Assembly (NCBI GenBank): GCA_020047815.1
Contig: JAIFNG010000061.1
Coordinates: forward strand, 1-51,333
Direction of reading: 5' to 3'
DNA from: Anaerolinea sp.
Lineage (GTDB): Bacteria > Chloroflexota > Anaerolineae > Anaerolineales > Villigracilaceae
DNA length: 51,333 bases
This document shows positions 9,280 to 23,304 of this stretch, piece by piece. Below the pieces are notes generated by a model. The model was not told the DNA's origin. It searched no databases and was given only the letters and a program-made list of their open reading frames with translations. The position numbers were made by a program, and so were the translations under genes. Position 1 is the stretch's first letter, and the number at the start of each line of letters is the position of its first letter.

Positions 9280-10782
9280 ATGGAAAACGAAAACTTCCTG
9301 CGAAAAAACCTGCCAGCGATTTTATGGATTGCCGTACTTGCCTCGATTTATTTTGTCCTGTCCTCATTAATTACCCCCTTTGCAGCTGGCATCACATTAA
9401 ATAGCAAAATCGTGGTTGAACGTCTCCAGGAAATTGGCAGTTTCCTTTTTGCAATTCTGGGGGGTCTTGCGATCATCGAAATTTATTTTTACCAGATTTT
9501 CTTCCGTGAGCCGCTTAACCAAACTTCCAGGATCATCACCAGGGCCATCCAAATTGTGCTGGGGCTCTTAACGTTGACAGTCGTGATCTACTTTTTCGAT
9601 CTGACCGACCTGATCAAACTTGGCGACAGCGCTTTCAGCAAATTTGTTTACATGCCCCTTGACCTGTTCACAGATCTTCAAAAATCCCTCATCAGTTCAA
9701 AGATCGCGGCCAAAGACTCCGGCAAAATAATCGCGGGCATCATTTTATCGCTCGGCATCCTGGCGCTGTATGCGGTCATTCAATTCACCAGCAGATCAAA
9801 AAATAGCCGGGTGGGCCTGGCGTACCTGTTGATCATGCCGGCGTTTATCGGCACGCTCTTCCTCATCATTTACCCCTTTCTTTTCGAGATCAAACTTGCG
9901 TTCTCAAATGCATCCCTTGGCACCCAGGCGACCAAGAATGCTGAATATGGTCTTATTTATGGCTGGGATAATCTCAAGGCTTTATTCACAGGCAGTGTGG
10001 CAAAGGACGCAAAATTCTTTGAGGTTTTCTGGCGCACCATCCTGTGGACAAGTATCAACGTCACGTTTCACACCCTGGGCGGCATGGGACTGGCCATCCT
10101 GCTCAACAGGCCGCTTAGATTCAAAGGCTTTTACCGCACGCTGCTGGTCATCCCCTGGGCCATTCCGACCACCATCGCTGCGATGGCATTGCGGAATGAA
10201 TTTGACAGCCGCTATGGCATGTTCAACATTATCCTTGGAAACATTAATACCTGGCTGACAACCGTCAGTCAGAACACAGAAAACATTGTCGGGATCGGGA
10301 ATGGCTTTGCCTGGCTGGCTGCCACCATCGGCCCCGTCAGTTGGAAACAGGATCCGGTTTGGGCGTTTGTTTCCGTTCTCCTTGCGAACATCTGGCTGGG
10401 GATCCCCTTCATGTCGGTCATCATCCTCGGCGGTCTGCAAAGCATCTCACAGGAATATTACGAAGCGGCCGAAATTGACGGCGCAAGCCGCTGGCAGCAA
10501 TTCCGCAACATCACCCTGCCCCTGCTCAGACCCGTCCTGACCCCCGCCATTATTTTGGGCGTCGTTTGGACATTCAACAAATTCGACATTATTTACCTGA
10601 TCACACAGGGAGGTCCACAGGAAAAAACGGACATCCTTGTGTCCTCCATGTATAAAGCCGCGTTCCAATTTTATCGCTACGGCTTCACTGCCATGTTCGC
10701 GCTTGTGATCTTTGCCATTCTCTTTGTGTTCACCCTTTTCTATCTCAAATCCAGCGGTGGACTTAAGTCTGCGACCGAATAA
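9280..10782 (+). CDS. ABC transporter permease, MalF type
   Basis: Membrane channel subunit of the CUT1 importer, 500 residues. It has an N-terminal extension of about 165 residues with four hydrophobic helices before the core permease, as in MalF rather than in short LacF-type subunits. The EAA loop YYEAAEIDGASRWQQFRNITLP begins with E395 at the third position and would dock on the MalK-type ATPase. A large loop between helices of the core (about residues 225-250) faces outside. The stop codon is followed 10 nt later by the next permease start. GC content and codon use match neighbours. Confidence 0.9.
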   Translation: MENENFLRKNLPAILWIAVLASIYFVLSSLITPFAAGITLNSKIVVERLQEIGSFLFAILGGLAIIEIYFYQIFFREPLNQTSRIITRAIQIVLGLLTLTVVIYFFDLTDLIKLGDSAFSKFVYMPLDLFTDLQKSLISSKIAAKDSGKIIAGIILSLGILALYAVIQFTSRSKNSRVGLAYLLIMPAFIGTLFLIIYPFLFEIKLAFSNASLGTQATKNAEYGLIYGWDNLKALFTGSVAKDAKFFEVFWRTILWTSINVTFHTLGGMGLAILLNRPLRFKGFYRTLLVIPWAIPTTIAAMALRNEFDSRYGMFNIILGNINTWLTTVSQNTENIVGIGNGFAWLAATIGPVSWKQDPVWAFVSVLLANIWLGIPFMSVIILGGLQSISQEYYEAAEIDGASRWQQFRNITLPLLRPVLTPAIILGVVWTFNKFDIIYLITQGGPQEKTDILVSSMYKAAFQFYRYGFTAMFALVIFAILFVFTLFYLKSSGGLKSATE

Positions 10783-10792
10783 GGAGCATCCC

Positions 10793-11695
10793 ATGTCTAA
10801 CAATCCATTATCCCGCTTCTTTGGCTGGTTTTTCCATCGTTCACGCGGTGACAGTCCCTTCAAGACCCTCATGATCCACGCCACCCTTATTGTTGCATGT
10901 ATCATTGCCGTCTACCCCGTCCTGCGCGTGGTGACCATCTCCCTGCGCCCGAATGACACGCTGCTCACCACAGACCTGCGGATCATTCCAGAAAACGCCA
11001 CTCTCGATAATTACAAGGAAGTCCTGTTCGGCGATCCTGAAAAAAATCGCCAATCTGATTTCTTCCTTTGGATCTGGAACTCGATCTCCGTCGTGGCGGT
11101 CACTTCTGTCATCAGCGTCATCCTCGCGGCGATCAGCGCGTACGCCTTCTCACGCTTTCGCTTCCCGGGACGCGAGGCAGGCCTTGTATTCCTGCTGACC
11201 ACGCAAATGATCCCCGCGGGCATGCTATTGCTGCCCCTGTTCATTATGATCGCCAAGTTGAAAATGATCAACACCTCGCTCGGGCTCATTATTGCCTACG
11301 CTGTCACCTCGGTGCCGCTTACGATCTGGACGCTCAAAGGTTATTACGACACCATCCCCGTTGACCTGGAGGAAGCGGCGCTGATCGACGGCGCAAGCCG
11401 CGTCACCGTCTTCACCAAGATCATTCTGCCGCTTTCCACGCCCGCGCTTGCGATCGCCTTCCTCTTCTCGTTCATGGGCGGCTGGAGCGAGTATCTGGTG
11501 GCGCGGGTGGTCCTGCAAAAGAATGAGATCTTCACCTGGCCACTGGGCATCTTCACCTTTGCGCAGCAATTCACGGTTTCATGGGGTCAATTCGCCGCCG
11601 CATCCGTCCTGATCGCCATCCCTGTTATGGCGCTTTTCCTGTACTCATCCAAGTGGCTCATCTCGGGCCTCACGCTCGGCAGCGTAAAAGGATAG
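10793..11695 (+). CDS. ABC transporter permease, MalG type
   Basis: Second channel subunit of the importer, 300 residues with about six transmembrane helices. The EAA loop reads LEEAALIDGASRVTVFTKIILP, with E194 at the conserved position. The start at 10793 is preceded by AAGGAGCATCCC, which overlaps the stop of the MalF gene. A longer in-frame start at 10712 would lie within the MalF coding sequence and lacks a ribosome site. The C-terminal SGLTLGSVKG matches the MalG tail, which contacts the ATPase. A rho-independent terminator follows at 11713. Confidence 0.92.
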   Translation: MSNNPLSRFFGWFFHRSRGDSPFKTLMIHATLIVACIIAVYPVLRVVTISLRPNDTLLTTDLRIIPENATLDNYKEVLFGDPEKNRQSDFFLWIWNSISVVAVTSVISVILAAISAYAFSRFRFPGREAGLVFLLTTQMIPAGMLLLPLFIMIAKLKMINTSLGLIIAYAVTSVPLTIWTLKGYYDTIPVDLEEAALIDGASRVTVFTKIILPLSTPALAIAFLFSFMGGWSEYLVARVVLQKNEIFTWPLGIFTFAQQFTVSWGQFAAASVLIAIPVMALFLYSSKWLISGLTLGSVKG

Positions 11696-11712
11696 GGTTT
11701 CCCCAACCAATG

Positions 11713-11752
11713 ATCCCTTTCCTTCCTGGAGAAGGAGGGGATTATTTTTTTT
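11713..11752 (+). terminator. Rho-independent terminator after malG-like gene
   Basis: Imperfect stem 11713-11725 with 11731-11742 (one bulge, one G-T), 5-nt loop, then TTATTTTTTTT. It closes the binding-protein/permease unit before the GH13 genes. Confidence 0.8.
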
Positions 11753-11849
11753 CAAAAAAAATAAATACATCAGAGCTGGACTGTGACGAACAAGGATCAT
11801 TTCAGGCATTGGATCCCCCGCTCTGGTCCTCTCCTTTGAAAAACAACTC

Positions 11850-13460
11850 ATGATCAAACAGTTTTTTTCCACGCTCCTCATCCTTGCCCTGCTCCCTTCC
11901 TGCATTGCAGGTCCAACCGCTGATGCAACACCTCGCGCGGAATCCACACTTGGGCAGTGGTGGGACAGCGCCGTGTTCTACGAAATTTTCGTAAGATCGT
12001 TTTACGACAGCGACGGGAACGGCATCGGGGACTTCAACGGCGTCACCCAAAAACTTGATTATCTGGACGAACTAGGCATCAGCGCCATCTGGCTCATGCC
12101 CGTCTTTCCCTCCCCCTCCTATCACGGCTACGATGTGACGGATTATTACGCCGTCAATCCACAATATGGGACAATGGATGAATTCAAAAATCTGGTCACG
12201 GAAGCCCATGAACGGGACATCCGCATCATCCTTGATCTCGTCATCAACCACACCTCAGACAAGCATCCCTGGTTCAAGGAAGCCAAAGACCCCGGCTCTG
12301 CATATCGTGACTGGTACATCTGGACCGAGACAGACCCCCAATATAAGGGTCCCTGGGGCGAGCGGGTCTGGCATCCATCAACCAGCGGCTACTACTATGG
12401 CATCTTCGAAGCCTTCATGCCTGACTTAAATTACGCCAACCCGGCTGTCACCGCAGAGATGAAAAAGATCGCCAATTTCTGGCTGACAGACATGCGCGTG
12501 GACGGCTTCCGCCTGGATGCCGCCAAGCACTTGATCGAAGATGGGGCAAAACAGGACAACACCCAGGCCACCCACCTCTGGTATCAGAATGAATTTTATC
12601 CCGCGTACAAAAAAAATAATCCAGAGGCGATCACTGTCGGCGAATTATTCGGTGACGGTTTTAACACCCTCGCCAGCTACATCAAAAACGACCAGTTTGA
12701 CCTGGCGTTCAATTTTCAACTGGCAGCCAGTATTATCAAATCAGCGGATAGCGGCCGGGCAGGGTATCTGGCAGCGACCCTCGTCACCAGTGAAAAATCC
12801 ATCCCGGATCATCAATACGCGAGTTTCCTGACCAATCATGACCAGGAACGCATCCTGTCCCAACTGGGCGGGGATGTGGACAAGGCCAAACTTGCGGCTT
12901 TTCTGCTGCTCACTTCACCTGGAGTGCCTTTCATCTATTACGGCGAGGAGATCGGCATGATGGGAAAGAAGCCGGATGAAAATATCCGCCTGCCCATGCA
13001 GTGGACTTCGGGACCCAACGCGGGCTTTAGCACAGCGCGTCCCTGGCGCTCTCCTGCCGGTGATTTTGCCGTTGTCAATGTTGCCGCGCAAACCGCCAAA
13101 CCCGATTCACTGCTGGAACATTACCGCGCATTGATTCAATTACGAAACAGGGTTCCCACCCTGCAAACAGGCGAATTAATTATGTTAAAATCGAATAAAC
13201 CTTCAGTGTACACGGCCGTGCGGGCGGATAAATATGGAATATTCCTGATATTAACAAATCTCTCGAACCAGGCGATTGACGATTACAATATTCCGCTCGA
13301 TAAGGCCGGGCTGGCAGGATCCGCCTACCGTGTCTCTGCTGTCTTTGGCACAGAGCAGGTGGATGCGCCAGAGGTCACCCAAGACCGGCTGCAAAAGTAC
13401 AAACCTTTTGCAGCCCTGCCGCCCTATGCAATGATCGTTTTAAAATTCGATCCTAAATAA
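11850..13460 (+). CDS. Secreted GH13 alpha-glucosidase/alpha-amylase lipoprotein
   Basis: Surface-anchored alpha-glucan hydrolase, 536 residues. A short lipoprotein signal ends at LLPSC with Cys18. The (beta/alpha)8 barrel begins at WWDSAVFYEIFVRSFYDSDGNGIGDF. Conserved regions: DLVINHTS (I), GFRLDAAKH with nucleophile D223 (II), VGELFG with acid/base E265 (III), and LTNHDQER with D331 (IV). A C-terminal beta domain follows from about residue 440. The Asp-rich DSDGNGIGD loop is a typical calcium-site motif. It would trim starch-like chains outside the cell for the adjacent importer. Exact specificity (alpha-amylase or exo-glucosidase) cannot be settled. The cytoplasmic GH13 gene starts 11 nt after its stop, so the two are co-transcribed. 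Confidence 0.9.
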   Translation: MIKQFFSTLLILALLPSCIAGPTADATPRAESTLGQWWDSAVFYEIFVRSFYDSDGNGIGDFNGVTQKLDYLDELGISAIWLMPVFPSPSYHGYDVTDYYAVNPQYGTMDEFKNLVTEAHERDIRIILDLVINHTSDKHPWFKEAKDPGSAYRDWYIWTETDPQYKGPWGERVWHPSTSGYYYGIFEAFMPDLNYANPAVTAEMKKIANFWLTDMRVDGFRLDAAKHLIEDGAKQDNTQATHLWYQNEFYPAYKKNNPEAITVGELFGDGFNTLASYIKNDQFDLAFNFQLAASIIKSADSGRAGYLAATLVTSEKSIPDHQYASFLTNHDQERILSQLGGDVDKAKLAAFLLLTSPGVPFIYYGEEIGMMGKKPDENIRLPMQWTSGPNAGFSTARPWRSPAGDFAVVNVAAQTAKPDSLLEHYRALIQLRNRVPTLQTGELIMLKSNKPSVYTAVRADKYGIFLILTNLSNQAIDDYNIPLDKAGLAGSAYRVSAVFGTEQVDAPEVTQDRLQKYKPFAALPPYAMIVLKFDPK

Positions 13461-13471
13461 CGAGGAATACA

Positions 13472-14944
13472 ATGACGACTCCCAGCTGGGTAAGAGATGC
13501 AGTTTTTTATCAGATTTTTCCGGACCGCTTTGCAAAAAGCAGGCACAACCCTTCGGCTAATTTGCCCTTCGAAGCATGGGACTCCCCTCCTACGGTCCAT
13601 GGCTTTAAAGGCGGCGACCTGCACGGCGTGATCGAAAAACTGGATTACCTGCAAAAGCTTGGCATTACTGCCATTTATTTCAACCCGGTCTTTGCCTCGG
13701 CCAGCAACCACAGATATCACACCTACGACTACTATCAAATTGACCCCCTGCTGGGCGGGAACGACGCGCTTAAAAAATTGATCCGGGAGGCGCATAAACG
13801 GGAAATTCGCATCGTGCTGGATGGCGTGTTCAATCATGCCTCGCGCGGTTTCTGGCAGTTCCACCATGTGCTGGAAAACGGCGAAGGCTCTCCGTATGTG
13901 AACTGGTTTTATTTCGATCCTGAGCGGCTCAAGGGGCGCCGCCATTGGGGCGCATACCCTGCCACAGGTGAATTGCACGCCCTGCATAACGGTGAAGCAA
14001 GTCTGCACGCCATCGGCTATCAAGCCTGGTGGAATTTGCCCGCCCTGCCAAAGTTCAATACCGACACACCCGCCGTGCGTGATTTCCTGTTTGACGTGGC
14101 CGAATATTGGATCAAATTTGGCATTGACGGCTGGCGGCTGGACGTTCCCGCCGAGATCAACGACGACGAATTCTGGCGCGAGTTCCGCCGCCGCGTCCAT
14201 GCCATCAATCCCGATGCTTACATCGTGGGCGAGATCTGGCATGAGGCGCAGCGCTGGCTTCAGGGTGACCAGTTCGATGCGGTGATGAATTACCCGGTCA
14301 CTGCGCTGGCCCTAAATTTCTTTGCAGCGGACAGCCTGGATTATCAGGTCATTCAGCATGCGGGCGGATTGAAAGACCGCATCCATCCGATCAAAGCCTA
14401 TGACGCCGCCAACGAGTTGGACCGTCTGCTGCACCTGTATCCGCACGATATTACCTATGCGCAGCTTAACCTGCTCGACAGCCACGATACCCCGCGCTTT
14501 CTTTCGAGTGCCGGCGGAGACCGGGATGCGCTCAAACTGGCCTGGCTGTTGATGTGCACCATCCCCGGCGCACCCTGCATTTACTACGGCGACGAGATCG
14601 GTGTGGATGGCGGGCATGACCCCGACTGCCGCAAATCCTTCCCCTGGGATGAAAGAAAATGGGATAAAGACCTGCTTGAATACGCCAGGTCCTGCATTGC
14701 GCTGCGGACGAAATATGTCCCCCTGCGGCGCGGCGACTACAAACGGGTCCATGCCGATGGCGAGGTGCTGGCATACTCGCGTTCATACGGCGCTGAAAAC
14801 ATCACCGTTGCATTCAACACTGCAAGGGAAGAGAGAACCATCACCCTCCCATCCGCAAAAAAGCCCTACGTGTTGTTCGGAACGCCTTCCATCTCTGGCA
14901 ATCAGGTTACCATCCCGCCGCGCAGTGGAGTTGTTTTGAAATAA
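13472..14944 (+). CDS. Cytoplasmic GH13 neopullulanase/cyclomaltodextrinase-like enzyme
   Basis: Intracellular maltodextrin hydrolase of 490 residues without a signal peptide. It starts VRDAVFYQIFPDRFA, the neopullulanase-subfamily opening. Region I DGVFNHAS, region II GWRLDVPAEI with D224, region III VGEIWHE with E254, and region IV LDSHDTPRF with D339 are complete. The N-terminal starch-binding domain that many neopullulanases use to dimerise (about 120 residues) is missing, so this is a short form. AACGAGGAATAC precedes the ATG. The likely role is cleavage of imported maltodextrins to maltose and glucose. A clear terminator at 14950 closes the operon. Confidence 0.88.
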   Translation: MTTPSWVRDAVFYQIFPDRFAKSRHNPSANLPFEAWDSPPTVHGFKGGDLHGVIEKLDYLQKLGITAIYFNPVFASASNHRYHTYDYYQIDPLLGGNDALKKLIREAHKREIRIVLDGVFNHASRGFWQFHHVLENGEGSPYVNWFYFDPERLKGRRHWGAYPATGELHALHNGEASLHAIGYQAWWNLPALPKFNTDTPAVRDFLFDVAEYWIKFGIDGWRLDVPAEINDDEFWREFRRRVHAINPDAYIVGEIWHEAQRWLQGDQFDAVMNYPVTALALNFFAADSLDYQVIQHAGGLKDRIHPIKAYDAANELDRLLHLYPHDITYAQLNLLDSHDTPRFLSSAGGDRDALKLAWLLMCTIPGAPCIYYGDEIGVDGGHDPDCRKSFPWDERKWDKDLLEYARSCIALRTKYVPLRRGDYKRVHADGEVLAYSRSYGAENITVAFNTAREERTITLPSAKKPYVLFGTPSISGNQVTIPPRSGVVLK

Positions 14945-18465: not shown

Positions 18466-19764
18466 GTGCATACTCCGGATATAAACCTGCTGGGTTTGGT
18501 TTTGAAACAATGGCCTGAACGGGTTCGCTCATACAAACGGGGAAATGTTCTCTATTGGCAGGGTGATCCTGTGGAAAATTTGTATGTAGTTCAAAATGGG
18601 GCAGTCAAAATATCCTCCATATCAAGTTCAGGAAAAATATATTCACATGGGATCCTAGGCGCGGGTCACTTATTAGGGGCAACAGACTATTTTTTGGATA
18701 GTATCCACGAAACAACCGCTGAAGTTGTAGACAAAACCTTGCTGGTTGTGATCCCACTTTCAGAGTTTCAACATCTGATTGGACGGGATCGAAACTTCTC
18801 TACATGTGTCATGCGCGAGTTGGCAAAAGAAGCCAAGGTTCATTTTTCCAAGGCGCAGGATTTGAGTTTTCTGGATGCGCAGCAGCGACTTAAACATTGT
18901 TTGATAAAACTGGCTGAGGAACATGGACTCGAAACAGATAAGGGTGTTGAAATAGATGTCAATATCACGCATGAAGATATTGCAGAGTTGATTAACGCAA
19001 ATCGAACGACTATTACGCTCTGCCTGCAGGATCTAAAAAAACTTGGTTACCTCATAACAGAAGGTAGAAGGATTATCCTGATCCCTGTCAATCACATTAT
19101 CATACTCGATCAACTAAGCGAGGCTGTTGTCTGCGGTGGAATTGGCGAAGCTGCCGATCTGGTAAACACTGCCATTGCAGAGGGAATCGATTTGGTCATT
19201 GTTTTGAATGCTTTGATGAGCGGAATGAAGGAAGTGGATCGGAGATATGCGCAGGGTCAAAATGATATAAACGATATTATGTGGTCGGCCACACATATGC
19301 AAGAAGCCCTGCCGATCATCGAAGCTGCCATCAAACATGAGGATATCAGTCTAAATCATCTCGGAAGAATTGTATTTGGAACGGTTCAGGGCGATATTCA
19401 CAATATCGGCAAAACAATGGTCACCATGCTGCTCAGGGCGCGGGGGTTCGAGGTCATAGATCTGGGAGTGGATATATCTGCTGAGGAATTTGTGGAAGCA
19501 GTGAAAAAATATAAGCCAGATATCCTCGCAATGTCTGCTTTGTTATCCACAACCCAACTTGAAATGAAGAACGTTGTCCAAGCGTTGGAAGATGCCGGAG
19601 TACGGGACCAGATAAAAGTAATGATTGGGGGAACCCCTATCACTCCGAAATTTGCACAAGAAATAGGCGCTGATGGTTATGCCCAGGAGGCCCGTGGTGG
19701 AGTTGAATTGGCCTGGGGGTGGTGCAGCAATCCTGATAGCTGGTTTCCATTAGTCGAACTGTGA
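18466..19764 (+). CDS. Crp/Fnr-type regulator fused to a corrinoid-binding module
   Basis: 432 residues in three parts. Residues about 17-115 form a cyclic-nucleotide-binding-type beta barrel (GNVLYWQGDPVENLYVVQNGAVKI). The cAMP-contact Glu and Arg-Ser of Crp are not conserved (GHLLGATDYF...HETTAEV), and there are no N-terminal Fnr cysteines. Residues about 140-205 form a Crp-type winged helix (NITHEDIAELINANRTTITLCL, from residue 166). Residues about 215-425 form a complete methyltransferase-type corrinoid unit: a helical cap, then a Rossmann-like domain with the DxHxxG lower-ligand motif D310-I-H312-N-I-G315 and the downstream MSALLSTT and GGTP segments. The C-terminal half closely resembles the corrinoid protein encoded at 21075. 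Inference: a transcription factor sensing cobalamin or its methylation state and controlling the next two genes. GTG start, leaderless promoter. Confidence 0.9.
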   Translation: MHTPDINLLGLVLKQWPERVRSYKRGNVLYWQGDPVENLYVVQNGAVKISSISSSGKIYSHGILGAGHLLGATDYFLDSIHETTAEVVDKTLLVVIPLSEFQHLIGRDRNFSTCVMRELAKEAKVHFSKAQDLSFLDAQQRLKHCLIKLAEEHGLETDKGVEIDVNITHEDIAELINANRTTITLCLQDLKKLGYLITEGRRIILIPVNHIIILDQLSEAVVCGGIGEAADLVNTAIAEGIDLVIVLNALMSGMKEVDRRYAQGQNDINDIMWSATHMQEALPIIEAAIKHEDISLNHLGRIVFGTVQGDIHNIGKTMVTMLLRARGFEVIDLGVDISAEEFVEAVKKYKPDILAMSALLSTTQLEMKNVVQALEDAGVRDQIKVMIGGTPITPKFAQEIGADGYAQEARGGVELAWGWCSNPDSWFPLVEL

Positions 19765-19795: not shown

Positions 19796-19838
19796 TGTTG
19801 TCCAGGCAACATCGTTGGTTCTTTTCCCGAAGTAGAAT
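19796..19838 (+). promoter_or_regulatory. Crp-type dyad and -10 box in front of the methyltransferase gene
   Basis: TGTTG (19796-19800), a 6-bp spacer and CAACA (19807-19811) have the 5-N6-5 geometry of Crp-family sites (TGTGA-N6-TCACA). A TAGAAT hexamer lies at 19833-19838. If transcription begins 7 nt after it (19845), as for the leaderless genes here, the dyad centre is at -41.5, the classical class II activator position. No good -35 hexamer is present. Confidence 0.55.
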
Positions 19839-19877
19839 GGAAATATCAAAATCTTCGTAATGGGAAAGGAGCACAAA

Positions 19878-21074
19878 ATGGCTAATCTGATGGCAATCAT
19901 GCTAAAAGCCGTGGCAAAGCGCAAGCTAGGCGTCGGAAAGATCAATGGCACGGAACGTTTTATGCTAAGCCAGCTTGGCATGGCAGATCGCATCCCAACT
20001 ACCTTGGGTGCAACCAACATTGAACCGCATTTGATAGATCCAAAATATAATTACACAATATTGGCCAAAAGCCCGGAAGCTAACCTGGAGTTATTTGAAA
20101 AGGTTTGCGAAAGGGTGGATGCTGATTTGATCGTAGCGCCGGTCTGGCAAGGCCTGATGTTTTTTGGAACGGCAGAACTGGGAACGGAATTCAAGATCAC
20201 TGACGATAGAGTACCTTACTCGGTTGGATACCCAATTAAGACCAAAGAGGATATAGAGAAAATAAAACTGCCTGAAGCGCCTGCCGGTTACTTCAAAATG
20301 TATCTGGACATCACCAAGGAAGCTCAGAGACGCCGCCCAGACCTGCTGTTTACCATGCTTTTCGATGGCCCCTGGGATTTGGCGATGCTGCTAAGGGGAG
20401 ACGATAAATTACCTCTGGATATGCGCTTGTATAAGGATTATGTCGAGACGGATGATCCTATCCGTAAAGAGAAAATCCGAAAGCGTGGAAATCCAGACAT
20501 TTACCCTGCGATCATGGAATTGACAACTAAATTGGCAATTCAGCACATTAGCCTGGCGGTGAAATATGGCATGTCGCTTACGGGAGCTATGTTAGTTGAT
20601 CAATATGCAGCCAGTCCGATCATGAGCCGCCAGGACTATGTGAAATATGTACTTCCATACATCGAAAGAGTGTGGCTCCATCATAAGAAAAAGGTGCAAA
20701 TCATGTATCCGTGTCCATCTCCAAATCAAATGCAGGAGATCATGGAGAAAGAGCCGGATGGGATCAATCATCAGATCCTATGGGCAAACTACATTTTCCC
20801 GACAACGCCTGAAGGGATTACTCTGCCAGAATTTGATCGTCCCGTATTCGAGCTTGCGAAAAAATACAAAAAGAACTTTTCTTATTTTCTTCACGGCAAG
20901 TTCTTGAGAGATGCGACCGAATTGGAGATCGAACAAGTTGTCAAGCGCGTGTGTACCTTGGCAGTTCAAATGGGCGTTTCGCTCTCGTTTATTATTTCTT
21001 CGGTTCCTCCGGGAGCAAGTTTGGAAAAAGCCAACTTCACATTTCAAATGGTTCAAAAATATGGGAGATACTAA
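19878..21074 (+). CDS. Uroporphyrinogen decarboxylase (UroD)-family methyltransferase
   Basis: 398-residue cytoplasmic TIM-barrel protein of the UroD/MtaA/CmuA superfamily, which moves methyl groups between corrinoid proteins and acceptors. ERFMLSQLGMADRIP, RVDADLIVAPVWQGL and the C-terminal VPPG segment fit the family. In MtaA-like enzymes three residues bind zinc: His and Cys in an HxC motif and a later Cys. Here the first pair aligns with Y277-P278-C279, and the later Cys region reads S374-S375-VPPG, so only one ligand seems kept (alignment by eye). The start at 19878 has AAAGGAGCACAAA before it; an ATG at 19860 lacks such a site. The stop abuts the corrinoid protein start, implying translational coupling. 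Substrate unknown; it is not a haem-pathway HemE. Confidence 0.85.
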   Translation: MANLMAIMLKAVAKRKLGVGKINGTERFMLSQLGMADRIPTTLGATNIEPHLIDPKYNYTILAKSPEANLELFEKVCERVDADLIVAPVWQGLMFFGTAELGTEFKITDDRVPYSVGYPIKTKEDIEKIKLPEAPAGYFKMYLDITKEAQRRRPDLLFTMLFDGPWDLAMLLRGDDKLPLDMRLYKDYVETDDPIRKEKIRKRGNPDIYPAIMELTTKLAIQHISLAVKYGMSLTGAMLVDQYAASPIMSRQDYVKYVLPYIERVWLHHKKKVQIMYPCPSPNQMQEIMEKEPDGINHQILWANYIFPTTPEGITLPEFDRPVFELAKKYKKNFSYFLHGKFLRDATELEIEQVVKRVCTLAVQMGVSLSFIISSVPPGASLEKANFTFQMVQKYGRY

Positions 21075-21864: not shown

Positions 21865-22122
21865 GTGTACAAAATCACCTACACCACCCAGGCCGCGAAA
21901 GCCTTGCTCAAAATGCCCCGAAATATCGCTCAATTGATTCGGGAAAAAATGGAGCAGGTGGCCGTTGATCCATTTGCATCAATCTCAAATGCTAAAAAAC
22001 TGCAAGCCAGGTCAGGTTATCGTTTACGGGTTGGTGATTGGCGCGTGATCTATGAAATCAATACAGACCAGGTTGTAATTATTGTTATGAAAATTTCCCC
22101 CAGGGGCGAGGTGTACAAATGA
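21865..22122 (+). CDS. RelE/ParE-family toxin
   Basis: 85-residue toxin of a type II pair, probably an mRNA interferase. The sequence shows the RelE fold order: YTTQAAKALLKMPRNIAQLIREKMEQVA helices, then KKLQARSGYRLRVGDWRVIYEIN, the basic strand-turn carrying the Arg residues used in catalysis, and a final strand VVIIVMKISPRGEVY. GTG start with a leaderless promoter. Its last 4 bases overlap the antitoxin start (ATGA), the normal coupling in such modules, here with the toxin gene first. The nucleolytic mode cannot be confirmed from sequence. Confidence 0.9.
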   Translation: MYKITYTTQAAKALLKMPRNIAQLIREKMEQVAVDPFASISNAKKLQARSGYRLRVGDWRVIYEINTDQVVIIVMKISPRGEVYK

Positions 22123-22502
22123 GCGTACAAGTGATCAAACAAGGTGATAAGCCGGAATGGGCAGTCGTTCCTTATAAAATCTATTTGGATCTTGTCGAAA
22201 AGGCTGAAATGCTGCAGGACGTCCTGGATTATGACAGCGCAAAAGCGGCTTTGGAACGCGGTGATGATGAATTAGTTCCAAGTGAAGTGGTTTATGCCAT
22301 TCTCGATGGCGAAAACCCTATAAAAGTTTGGCGCGAATATCGCGGAATGTCACAGCCAGAGACTGCTGAAAAAGCGGGGATTAGCGTGCCTTATTTATCA
22401 CAATTGGAAACCAATAAACGCAAAGGCTCACTTGATGTTTTATCGGCCCTTGCCAAAGTTCTGCAAGTTTCCCTTGAAAACATAGTTTCTTCGCAATCTT
22501 AA
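22119..22502 (+). CDS. Xre-family antitoxin
   Basis: 127 residues. The C-terminal half (about 65-122) is a lambda-repressor-like helix-turn-helix: VWREYRGMSQPETAEKAGISVPYLSQLETNKRKGSLDVLSALAKVL (residues split by eye). The N-terminal half (VIKQGDKPEWAVVPYKIYLDLVEKAE) resembles the Phd/RelB-like extension seen in antitoxins that partner RelE toxins, where it wraps the toxin. It would neutralise the 21865 product and repress the promoter. It overlaps the toxin stop by 4 bp. About 220 bp of repeat-like, gene-free sequence follows. Confidence 0.88.
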   Translation: MSVQVIKQGDKPEWAVVPYKIYLDLVEKAEMLQDVLDYDSAKAALERGDDELVPSEVVYAILDGENPIKVWREYRGMSQPETAEKAGISVPYLSQLETNKRKGSLDVLSALAKVLQVSLENIVSSQS

Positions 22503-22723: not shown

Positions 22724-22978
22724 GTGGATAGCAAACACCGTAAAACCCTTGAAGCCATTTTCGAGAAGCCAGAGCGGGCAAATATCCTTTGGAGGGATAT
22801 CGAGTCTTTGTTCACCGCTTTGGACGCTGAAATTTCAGAAGGTCATGGCTCAAGAGTTCGAGTCGCTTTGAAAGGTGTTCGCGCTGTTTTTCACCGTCCG
22901 CATCCACGCAAGGAAACAAACAAAGGAGCAGTAAAGTCCGTTCGTCGTTTTCTCGAAGCGGCAGGAGTAAAGCCATGA
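22724..22978 (+). CDS. hicA: HicA-family mRNA interferase toxin
   Basis: 84-residue double-stranded-RNA-binding-fold toxin that cleaves mRNA. The family features are the helix KTLEAIFEKPERANILWRDIESLFTALDAEI, the GHGS turn with catalytic His41, SRVRVALKGVRAVFHRPHP, and a C-terminal helix VKSVRRFLEAAG. Starts at GTG with a leaderless promoter. The last 4 bases overlap hicB (ATGA). Toxin-first order and small size are standard for HicAB. Intact by length and motifs. Confidence 0.92.
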   Translation: MDSKHRKTLEAIFEKPERANILWRDIESLFTALDAEISEGHGSRVRVALKGVRAVFHRPHPRKETNKGAVKSVRRFLEAAGVKP

Positions 22979-23304
22979 TGGAATATAAAGGTTATATCGG
23001 TAAAATTGAAATTGATGATGAAGCAGGCATTTTGTATGGGGAAGTAATAAATGTCCGCGATGTGGTCACCTTTGAAGGCACAACCGTCGAAGAAGTTCAA
23101 AAGGCTTTTCACGAGTCGGTTGACGATTATTTGGAATTTTGTGCAGCGCGCGGCGAATCACCGGAAAAACCGTTTTCAGGTAAATTTGTTTTACGGTTAC
23201 CCGAAGAATTGCACCGCAAGGCATATATTCAGGCGAAACTGAAAGACAAGAGTCTGAATAGCTGGGTTACGGACGTTTTACAGTCGGTTCTTGAAGGTAA
23301 GTAG
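22975..23304 (+). CDS. hicB: HicB-family antitoxin
   Basis: 109 residues. The N-terminal half is a partial RNase H-like fold that masks HicA (YKGYIGKIEIDDEAGILYGEVINVRDVVTFEGTTVEEVQKAFHESVDDYLEFC). The C-terminal third, LRLPEELHRKAYIQAKLKDKSLNSWVTDVL, is a ribbon-helix-helix DNA-binding segment that would repress the hicAB promoter. It overlaps hicA by 4 bp. Typical length and no signs of decay. Confidence 0.92.
   Translation: MMEYKGYIGKIEIDDEAGILYGEVINVRDVVTFEGTTVEEVQKAFHESVDDYLEFCAARGESPEKPFSGKFVLRLPEELHRKAYIQAKLKDKSLNSWVTDVLQSVLEGK

What the first reader, a model, noticed from the sequence alone, without database searches (positions are those of the whole stretch)
18466..19764. Crp/Fnr transcription factor fused to a methyltransferase-type corrinoid-binding module
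Seen: a Crp-type barrel and winged helix followed, in one 432-residue frame, by a full helical cap plus cobalamin domain with D310-x-H312-x-x-G315. Known: B12-dependent regulators such as CarH use a MerR-type DNA-binding domain and a light-sensing B12 domain; I know of no characterised Crp/Fnr version carrying an MtaC/MtbC-like unit. The cAMP contacts and Fnr cysteines are absent, so the corrinoid is the likely signal. Inferred role: sensing cobalamin supply, Co oxidation state or methyl-Co level to control methyl-group metabolism.
Basis: partly seen in the sequence, partly recalled or inferred. Interest (0 to 1): 0.93.

Follow-up and report, generated by a model that had tools for sequence, protein, structure and literature searches.

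The report
Methyl-corrinoid sensor switching on methyltransferase operons
A bacterial gene-control protein of the Crp/Fnr family is fused to a vitamin-B12 methyl-carrier module and sits beside methyl-transfer genes, separated from them by a conserved 16-letter DNA site; it likely turns those genes on by reading the state of its own B12 cofactor, which would be a new way for anaerobes to sense methylated food.

Summary
Window 18466-19764 is one 432-codon frame with cNMP_binding, HTH_Crp_2, B12-binding_2 and B12-binding domains. The 120 listed homologues (best of 2330 matches) all carry Crp-HTH and B12-binding domains, so it is no assembly join. The family is patchy; I found 14 copies in 11 genomes.

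New here: all 14 loci have a corrinoid methyltransferase-system gene downstream (methyltransferase or free carrier in 13, the start of a RACo activator in the contig-truncated 14th). Just after the regulator gene lies a 16-bp palindrome, TGTYG-N6-CRACA (13 of 14 exact, one with one mismatch; window 19796-19811). A -10-like hexamer follows at 20-22 bases in 13 of 14 (0 of 5000 shuffles), placing the palindrome at about -41.5, the class II activator position. A refined pattern hit 12 places in 11 genomes: 10 at regulators, 2 elsewhere, both heading methyltransferase operons.

So: very likely a dedicated activator of methyl-transfer operons. That its corrinoid is the signal is inferred from retained cobalt-ligand motifs (135 of 135 rows; CarH light-sensing motif in none); methylation by the operon's own methyltransferase is my preferred, untested mechanism.

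The parts
18466..19764 (+). Crp/Fnr-corrinoid fusion regulator, 432 aa
   Evidence: single open frame; four Pfam domains; 120 listed homologues
18526..18786 (+). Crp-type beta barrel (cNMP_binding, residues 21-107), without the canonical cAMP contacts
   Evidence: Pfam; alignment to M. tuberculosis CRP; column counts
18883..19080 (+). Crp-type winged helix-turn-helix (HTH_Crp_2, residues 140-205); recognition helix N179-R180-T181-T182-I183
   Evidence: Pfam; N179 134/135, R180 134/135, T182 133/135 rows
19105..19320 (+). helical cap of the corrinoid module (B12-binding_2, residues 214-285); D258 instead of the Gly of free carriers
   Evidence: Pfam; Asp or Glu at 258 in 135 of 135 family rows, Gly in 13 of 13 free carriers compared (12 from regulator loci, 1 from L149)
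19363..19695 (+). corrinoid-binding Rossmann domain (B12-binding, residues 300-410) with D310-x-H312-x-x-G315, S357, G388-G389
   Evidence: Pfam; these residues kept in 135 of 135 rows
19796..19811 (.). predicted operator TGTTGTCCAGGCAACA, 16-bp near-palindrome between the regulator and the methyltransferase genes
   Evidence: only match of TGTYGN6CRACA in the window, 0.24 expected; same place in 13 of 14 regulator loci, 14th with one mismatch
19833..19838 (+). predicted -10 hexamer TAGAAT, 21 bases after the palindrome (palindrome centre at about -41.5)
19860..21074 (+). UroD-superfamily protein, likely substrate:corrinoid methyltransferase (MT1); probable true start at 19878 by eye
   Evidence: PF01208 42.9 bits; 53-67% identical neighbours in L101, L103, L115
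21075..21701 (+). free-standing methyltransferase corrinoid carrier (MtgC/MtbC/MtaC-like), 208 aa
   Evidence: B12-binding_2 + B12-binding; TIGR02370 187 bits, below its cut-off of 215

Best explanation
This is a Crp/Fnr-family protein fused to a methyl-carrier-type corrinoid module, and it likely acts as a dedicated class II activator: bound to the 16-bp palindrome downstream of its own gene, it would recruit RNA polymerase to the adjacent corrinoid methyltransferase operon. Shown by sequence: the fusion, the retained histidine and tail-binding motifs of the corrinoid module, the conserved operon neighbourhood, the conserved palindrome, and the -10-like hexamer at the spacing of a -41.5 activator site. 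Inferred: that this protein binds a corrinoid, that it binds the palindrome, that it activates, and that its corrinoid state is the signal. Preferred mechanism (untested): the operon's substrate-specific methyltransferase (UroD or MTTB type) methylates Co(I) on the regulator as it does on the free carrier, so the regulator carries a methyl group when methylated substrate is present; the change at the cobalt face moves the helical cap and switches the Crp dimer to its DNA-binding form; demethylation or oxidation, with reactivation by RACo, resets it.
For: (1) Neighbourhood: of 14 loci in 11 genomes, 12 have a UroD or MTTB methyltransferase and 12 a free carrier downstream on the same strand; 13 have at least one of them, and the 14th (L118), cut by its contig end, has the first 24 residues of a RACo (75% identical, 1.5e-11). 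(2) Operator: TGTYGN6CRACA occurs once in each of 13 of 14 loci (221,696 bases in all), always -7 to +292 bases from the regulator stop; L116 has one mismatch. (3) Spacing: TAnnnT starts 20-22 bases after the palindrome in 13 of 14, exactly 21 in 8; 0 of 5000 shuffles reach either value. No -35: best match to TTGACA is 4 of 6 in 3 of 14, 3 or fewer in the rest. (4) Sites elsewhere: WGTYGYCYAGNCRACA hits 12 places in 8 of 11 genomes, reversed-pattern control 0; the 2 places away from a regulator head a carrier+UroD operon (L149) and a TctC+MTTB operon (L150), with TATAAT and TACAAT at exactly 21 bases. (5) Control: 79 corrinoid-protein loci without the Crp half (1.1 Mb, mixed phyla) hold 0 such cores, and 8 scattered matches of the loose pattern. 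(6) The B12 half is carrier-like: NCBIfam MtgC 186 and TIGR02370 171 bits against 27 for CarH; nearest solved chain MttC; the 14 regulator copies form one clade (98/88) in a 59-row tree, beside the free carriers of L106 and L119 and an actinobacterial one. (7) B12-half distances follow UroD distances independently of the Crp half (partial r 0.63, 3 of 5000; the reverse -0.14).
Against: No binding, expression or spectroscopic data. The loose half-site pattern alone is not enriched genome-wide (G000: 10 against 16 for the reversed control; G931 18 against 44; G055 11 against 6), so specificity rests on the core and the position. Four of 14 regulator loci deviate in the core (L100, L104, L105, L115), so the refined pattern misses them, and L116 lacks a TAnnnT hexamer at that spacing. 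One of the two distant sites (G1050:C66) had already appeared in the listing before I refined the pattern, though it was not used to build it. L106 has a carrier but no methyltransferase found, L105 a methyltransferase but no free carrier found. Several partner methyltransferase types share one regulator clade, which fits a general corrinoid signal as well as a methyl signal. The Mantel test has only 10 loci and strongly grouped UroD types. The model's domain arrangement is uncertain (pTM 0.67). REG_L105 is a long branch in the tree, whose root is the midpoint only.
Confidence: 0.55

Rival explanations
1. Same activator and operator, but the signal is cobalamin supply or cobalt redox state (apo/holo, or Co(II) against Co(I)), not methylation: it would match methyltransferase expression to usable corrinoid, or call for RACo when the cofactor is oxidised.
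For: RACo lies in the operon in 5 loci (L100, L102, L104, L116, L117) and is the first gene after the regulator in L100, L102, L117 and apparently in the cut locus L118. A protein with a weak match to the MetH activation domain (18-24 bits, cut-off 25) overlaps or abuts the regulator gene in L100, L102, L118. RACo is found in 11 of 11 genomes. One regulator clade serves several methyltransferase types.
Against: No RACo was found in the window's operon or in the stretches fetched for L101, L103, L105, L106, L107, L115 and L119; the host's one RACo is on another contig. The B12 half co-varies with the UroD type, not expected of a pure supply sensor.
Confidence: 0.3
2. The protein binds the palindrome but represses the operon, releasing it when the corrinoid is loaded or methylated.
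For: Crp/Fnr members can repress; CarH, the best-known B12 regulator, represses (both recalled).
Against: The palindrome centre lies at about -41.5 in front of promoters with a conserved -10-like hexamer and no conserved -35, the arrangement of activator-dependent class II promoters (general knowledge). A repressor site would more often lie over the -10 or start site.
Confidence: 0.08
3. A CarH-like or photocobilin-like light sensor that uses adenosylcobalamin.
Against: The residues proven in CarH (W131, E141, H142; PMC11796333, passages read) would give W-x9-EH: 0 of 135 rows hold it anywhere, and 0 of 135 hold EH in residues 245-290. No CarH sequence was aligned. Carrier profiles score about six times higher than CarH. 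Neighbours are methyl-transfer genes.
Confidence: 0.03
4. The corrinoid module works as a methyl carrier in catalysis and the Crp part is a passenger or anchors it near the operon.
For: The carrier motifs are kept.
Against: 12 of 14 loci already have a free carrier; all family rows carry Asp or Glu at 258 where the 13 carriers compared have Gly; the Crp half is about as conserved as the B12 half (45% and 49% mean identity over 10 loci) with a near-invariant recognition helix.
Confidence: 0.04

Closest known systems
CarH/LitR (MerR-family B12 photoreceptor repressors)
   Same: DNA-binding domain followed by helical cap and B12 Rossmann domain; cofactor as signal
   Different: MerR not Crp DNA-binding domain; the W-x9-EH of the light-sensing cap is absent in 135 of 135 rows; predicted activator of adjacent methyltransferase genes, not a light-controlled repressor (CarH's role recalled)
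CooA (heme-dependent CO sensor, Crp/Fnr family)
   Same: cofactor-sensing Crp/Fnr activator of a C1-metabolism operon; similar 16-bp site: CooA consensus TGTCGGCNNGCCGACA (PMC545781, passages read)
   Different: in CooA heme sits in the barrel and no module follows the HTH (recalled); here a corrinoid module follows the winged helix
MttC/MtgC/MtbC/MtaC methyltransferase corrinoid carriers
   Different: carriers stand alone; regulator copies form one clade and carry Asp or Glu at 258 where the 13 carriers compared have Gly
Mtv/Mto/Cdm corrinoid methyltransferase systems
   Same: methyltransferase 1, carrier, methyltransferase 2 and reductive activase in one operon, as in L100, L102, L116, L117 (Mto layout in PMC8630106, passages read)
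   Different: this regulator was not seen in the passages read: PMC8630106 shows an unspecified transcriptional regulator (TR) in the mto operon; PMC13222342 says no regulatory system is identified for cdm and regulation remains largely unexplored (passages)

Membership tests
Crp/Fnr superfamily | cNMP-type barrel followed by Crp-type winged HTH | tested here: met
   PF00027 and PF13545 above cut-off; fold matches to NtcA, FNR, CRP
Crp/Fnr superfamily | symmetric operator of about 16 bp near target promoters | tested here: inconclusive
   TGTYGN6CRACA at 13 of 14 loci, one mismatch in the 14th; that this protein binds it is not shown
CRP (cAMP receptor) | cAMP-contacting Glu and Arg of the barrel | tested here: not met
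   Ala at 72 in 112 of 135, His at 81 in 123 of 135; alignment; contact roles recalled
FNR | cysteines for the Fe-S cluster | tested here: not met
   only one Cys shared by over 20% of rows in residues 1-212, C186 in the recognition helix
CooA | heme ligands in the barrel | not tested
   no residue-level comparison with CooA was made
CarH/LitR | MerR-type DNA-binding domain | tested here: not met
   Pfam finds Crp-type domains and no MerR domain
CarH/LitR | cap Trp and Glu-His (W131, E141, H142) contacting adenosylcobalamin | tested here: not met
   W-x9-EH in 0 of 135 rows, EH in the cap in 0 of 135; residues from PMC11796333
methyltransferase corrinoid proteins | cap + Rossmann domains with DxHxxG, Ser, Gly-Gly | tested here: met
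   D310, H312, G315, S357, G388, G389 in 135 of 135
methyltransferase corrinoid proteins | score over the curated family cut-off | tested here: not met
   TIGR02370 171 bits against cut-off 215; MtgC 186 against 370; the free carrier of the window also misses them (187 and 191)
methyltransferase corrinoid proteins | accepts a methyl group from an MT1 enzyme | not testable with these tools
   needs enzyme assay

The most novel reading that the evidence does not exclude
A transcription factor that is itself a substrate of the enzyme it controls: the operon's methyltransferase methylates the cobalt of the regulator's carrier-like module, and methyl-Co(III) switches the Crp dimer into a class II activator, so that one decoy carrier reports the presence of any methylated substrate (methoxy compounds, methylamine-like compounds) for which the cell holds a methyltransferase.
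Probability: 0.4. Interest if true: 0.92.

Novelty: new variant of a known kind. Interest (0 to 1): 0.82.

Why it matters
How anaerobes choose among many corrinoid methyltransferase systems is open; a 2026 study of chloromethane use says that their regulation remains largely unexplored (PMC13222342, passages read). Here is a compact system with a predicted operator and promoter spacing, in front of several methyltransferase types. If the corrinoid state is the signal, it would be a B12 regulator that senses a metabolic intermediate on the metal rather than light, and the first in the Crp/Fnr family as far as my searches reach. The operator pattern can find target operons without the regulator gene nearby, as it did twice here, and so can point to substrates of uncharacterised methyltransferases.

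Tried and rejected
Assembly join or frameshift: rejected by 120 listed homologues of like length and domain order. Light sensor: motif absent. The named-genome scan with alignment A1 returned mostly free corrinoid proteins because its patterns came from the B12 half and one HTH stretch; of its 80 loci only L009 matched the query from the Crp half on (the same contig as L104), and no Crp half was found in the other 79 at E 1e-3. Sequence search of the window UroD against solved structures found nothing at E 0.1, so its substrate stays unknown. The bare half-site pattern gave background numbers per genome. Autoregulation through the same operator: no strict site upstream of the regulator in any of 14 loci, but L106, L119 and L116 have only 1, 0 and 167 bases of upstream sequence. 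In one search the printed 'centre' column carries an off-by-one error in my formula; with the -10 at -12 to -7 a gap of 21 gives -41.5, as. One search failed on file names and was rerun. In one search the free carrier of L107 was labelled CRPB12b (best hit to a regulator's B12 half); I count it as a carrier by its length of 214 residues. The first greedy frame list missed the L102 regulator under an opposite-strand frame; one search corrected this. The search from the L104 copy gave 37 proteins, 21 of them with the Crp-HTH and B12 domains by my reading, and no other phylum name for a fused one.

Genome counts are lower bounds: in the large searches only the best 4 or 5 candidates per genome were scored. 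Sets given in part: 35 of 121 proteins in alignment A1; of the 79 control loci every third (27) was offered to the tree, with 5 host loci, and 32 such rows entered; 10 of 14 loci (those with UroD) in the Mantel test. The 79 control loci come from mixed phyla, archaea included, and are not matched to the host.

Full report

Distribution. The family is patchy. It was found in 2 of 61 close genomes including the host (none of 36 others of the genus), 5 of 396 of the class, 6 of 350 of the order, and, with a relative as query, 2 of 400 of the phylum, the host counted each time. These sets overlap and are lower bounds. In a 59-row tree of B12 domains the 14 regulator copies form one clade (98/88). 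Beside it, in an unresolved fork, stand the free carriers of L106 and L119 (L119 has an MTTB gene) and one actinobacterial carrier; the free carriers of the other operons fall into several other clades. One fusion event, followed by association with several methyltransferase systems, is the simplest reading; one regulator row (L105) is a long branch.

Neighbourhood. I fetched the surroundings of 13 further copies and compared frames with Pfam-identified neighbours. Downstream on the same strand: UroD-type methyltransferase in 10 of 14, MTTB-type in 2, free carrier in 12, RACo in 5, pterin-binding methyltransferase in 4. L100, L102, L116 and L117 hold the whole set, as in the Mto demethylation system (PMC8630106, passages read). 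The window has UroD and carrier only; the host's one RACo lies on another contig. L106 has a carrier and DUF1638 but no methyltransferase found; L105 has MTTB but no free carrier found; L118 ends just after the regulator, with the first 24 residues of a RACo.

Operator. Reading the gaps after the regulator genes suggested a palindrome. TGTYGN6CRACA occurs exactly once in 13 of 14 loci, from -7 to +292 bases of the stop codon, and nowhere else in those 221,696 bases; L116 has AGTCG in the left arm. In the window it is 19796-19811, with 0.24 expected by chance in the whole window. Aligning the 14 loci on the palindrome shows one clear peak of matches to TATAAT, at hexamers starting 29.5 bases from the centre (mean 3.4 of 6; next best 2.4). 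TAnnnT lies there within one base in 13 of 14, and 0 of 5000 shuffles match this. With the -10 at -12 to -7, the palindrome centre is at -41.5, the place of a class II Crp/Fnr activator (general knowledge). No -35 box is conserved. The site resembles that of the CO sensor CooA (consensus in PMC545781, passages read).

Test beyond the training loci. A refined pattern, WGTYGYCYAGNCRACA, was run over the 11 genomes: 12 places in 8 genomes, reversed control none. Ten are regulator loci from which the pattern was drawn; four regulator loci with deviant cores are missed. The other two were not used to build it, though one (G1050:C66) had shown up in the listing. G1050:C66:73 precedes a carrier-UroD pair, and G525:C16:57943 precedes TctC, MTTB, a 2-hydroxyacid dehydrogenase and, further on, RACo; their -10 hexamers (TATAAT, TACAAT) start exactly 21 bases on. 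In 79 corrinoid-protein loci without the Crp half, 1.1 Mb from mixed phyla, no such core occurs; the loose pattern occurs 8 times, scattered. The loose pattern is not enriched genome-wide either, so the core and the position carry the specificity.

Signal. D310, H312, G315, S357, G388 and G389 are kept in 135 of 135 rows (132 distinct), so corrinoid binding with a histidine ligand is expected. Residue 261 is Tyr or Phe (134 of 135) and 268 Leu, Ile or Val (133 of 135), seven apart like the methyl-shielding pair of MetH (recalled). The W-x9-EH of CarH (residues from PMC11796333, passages read) is absent from 135 of 135 rows. One position separates regulators from carriers: 258 is Asp or Glu in 135 of 135 regulator rows and Gly in the 13 carriers compared; it is in the cap, three residues before the aromatic. 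B12-half distances follow UroD distances after correction for the Crp half (partial r 0.63, 3 of 5000), and the Crp half does not after correction for the B12 half (-0.14). This hints that the B12 half touches the methyltransferase, as a methyl acceptor would; with 10 loci it is a hint only.

Conclusion. Very likely: a dedicated local activator of corrinoid methyltransferase operons. Likely: corrinoid-bound. Preferred but untested: the methylation state, set by the operon's own methyltransferase, is the signal. Cobalamin supply or cobalt redox state remains the main rival.

Noticed in passing
window 21865-22502 and 22724-23304: Two toxin-antitoxin-like pairs directly downstream of the methyltransferase genes: ParE-type toxin with HTH partner, and HicA with HicB.
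   Followed up: partly
L100:7582-8262, L102:9818-10606 (-), L118:4095-4778: A 226-262 residue protein with a weak match to the MetH activation domain (18-24 bits, cut-off 25) abuts or overlaps the start of the regulator gene; it may reset the regulator's cobalt.
   Followed up: partly
L103:2689-3363, L106:2551-3201, L116:5172-5855 (-), L117:10016-10690 (-): DUF1638 genes recur beside these operons; function unknown.
   Followed up: no
P0001 residue 186: A cysteine in the recognition helix is conserved in 118 of 135 rows; it aligns with a buried position of CRP (recalled), but a redox role is not excluded.
   Followed up: no
P0140 (281 aa): A Crp-only protein 50% identical to 48% of the L104 regulator, without the B12 half: an unfused relative or a fragment at a contig end.
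   Followed up: partly
window 9280-14944: Two ABC-type sugar permease-like frames followed by two alpha-amylase-like frames upstream; recognised by eye only, seemingly unrelated.
   Followed up: no
L107:4284-8078 (-), L150:8110-9240: TctC-type solute-binding proteins inside or heading operator-linked operons, suggesting uptake of a carboxylated substrate.
   Followed up: no
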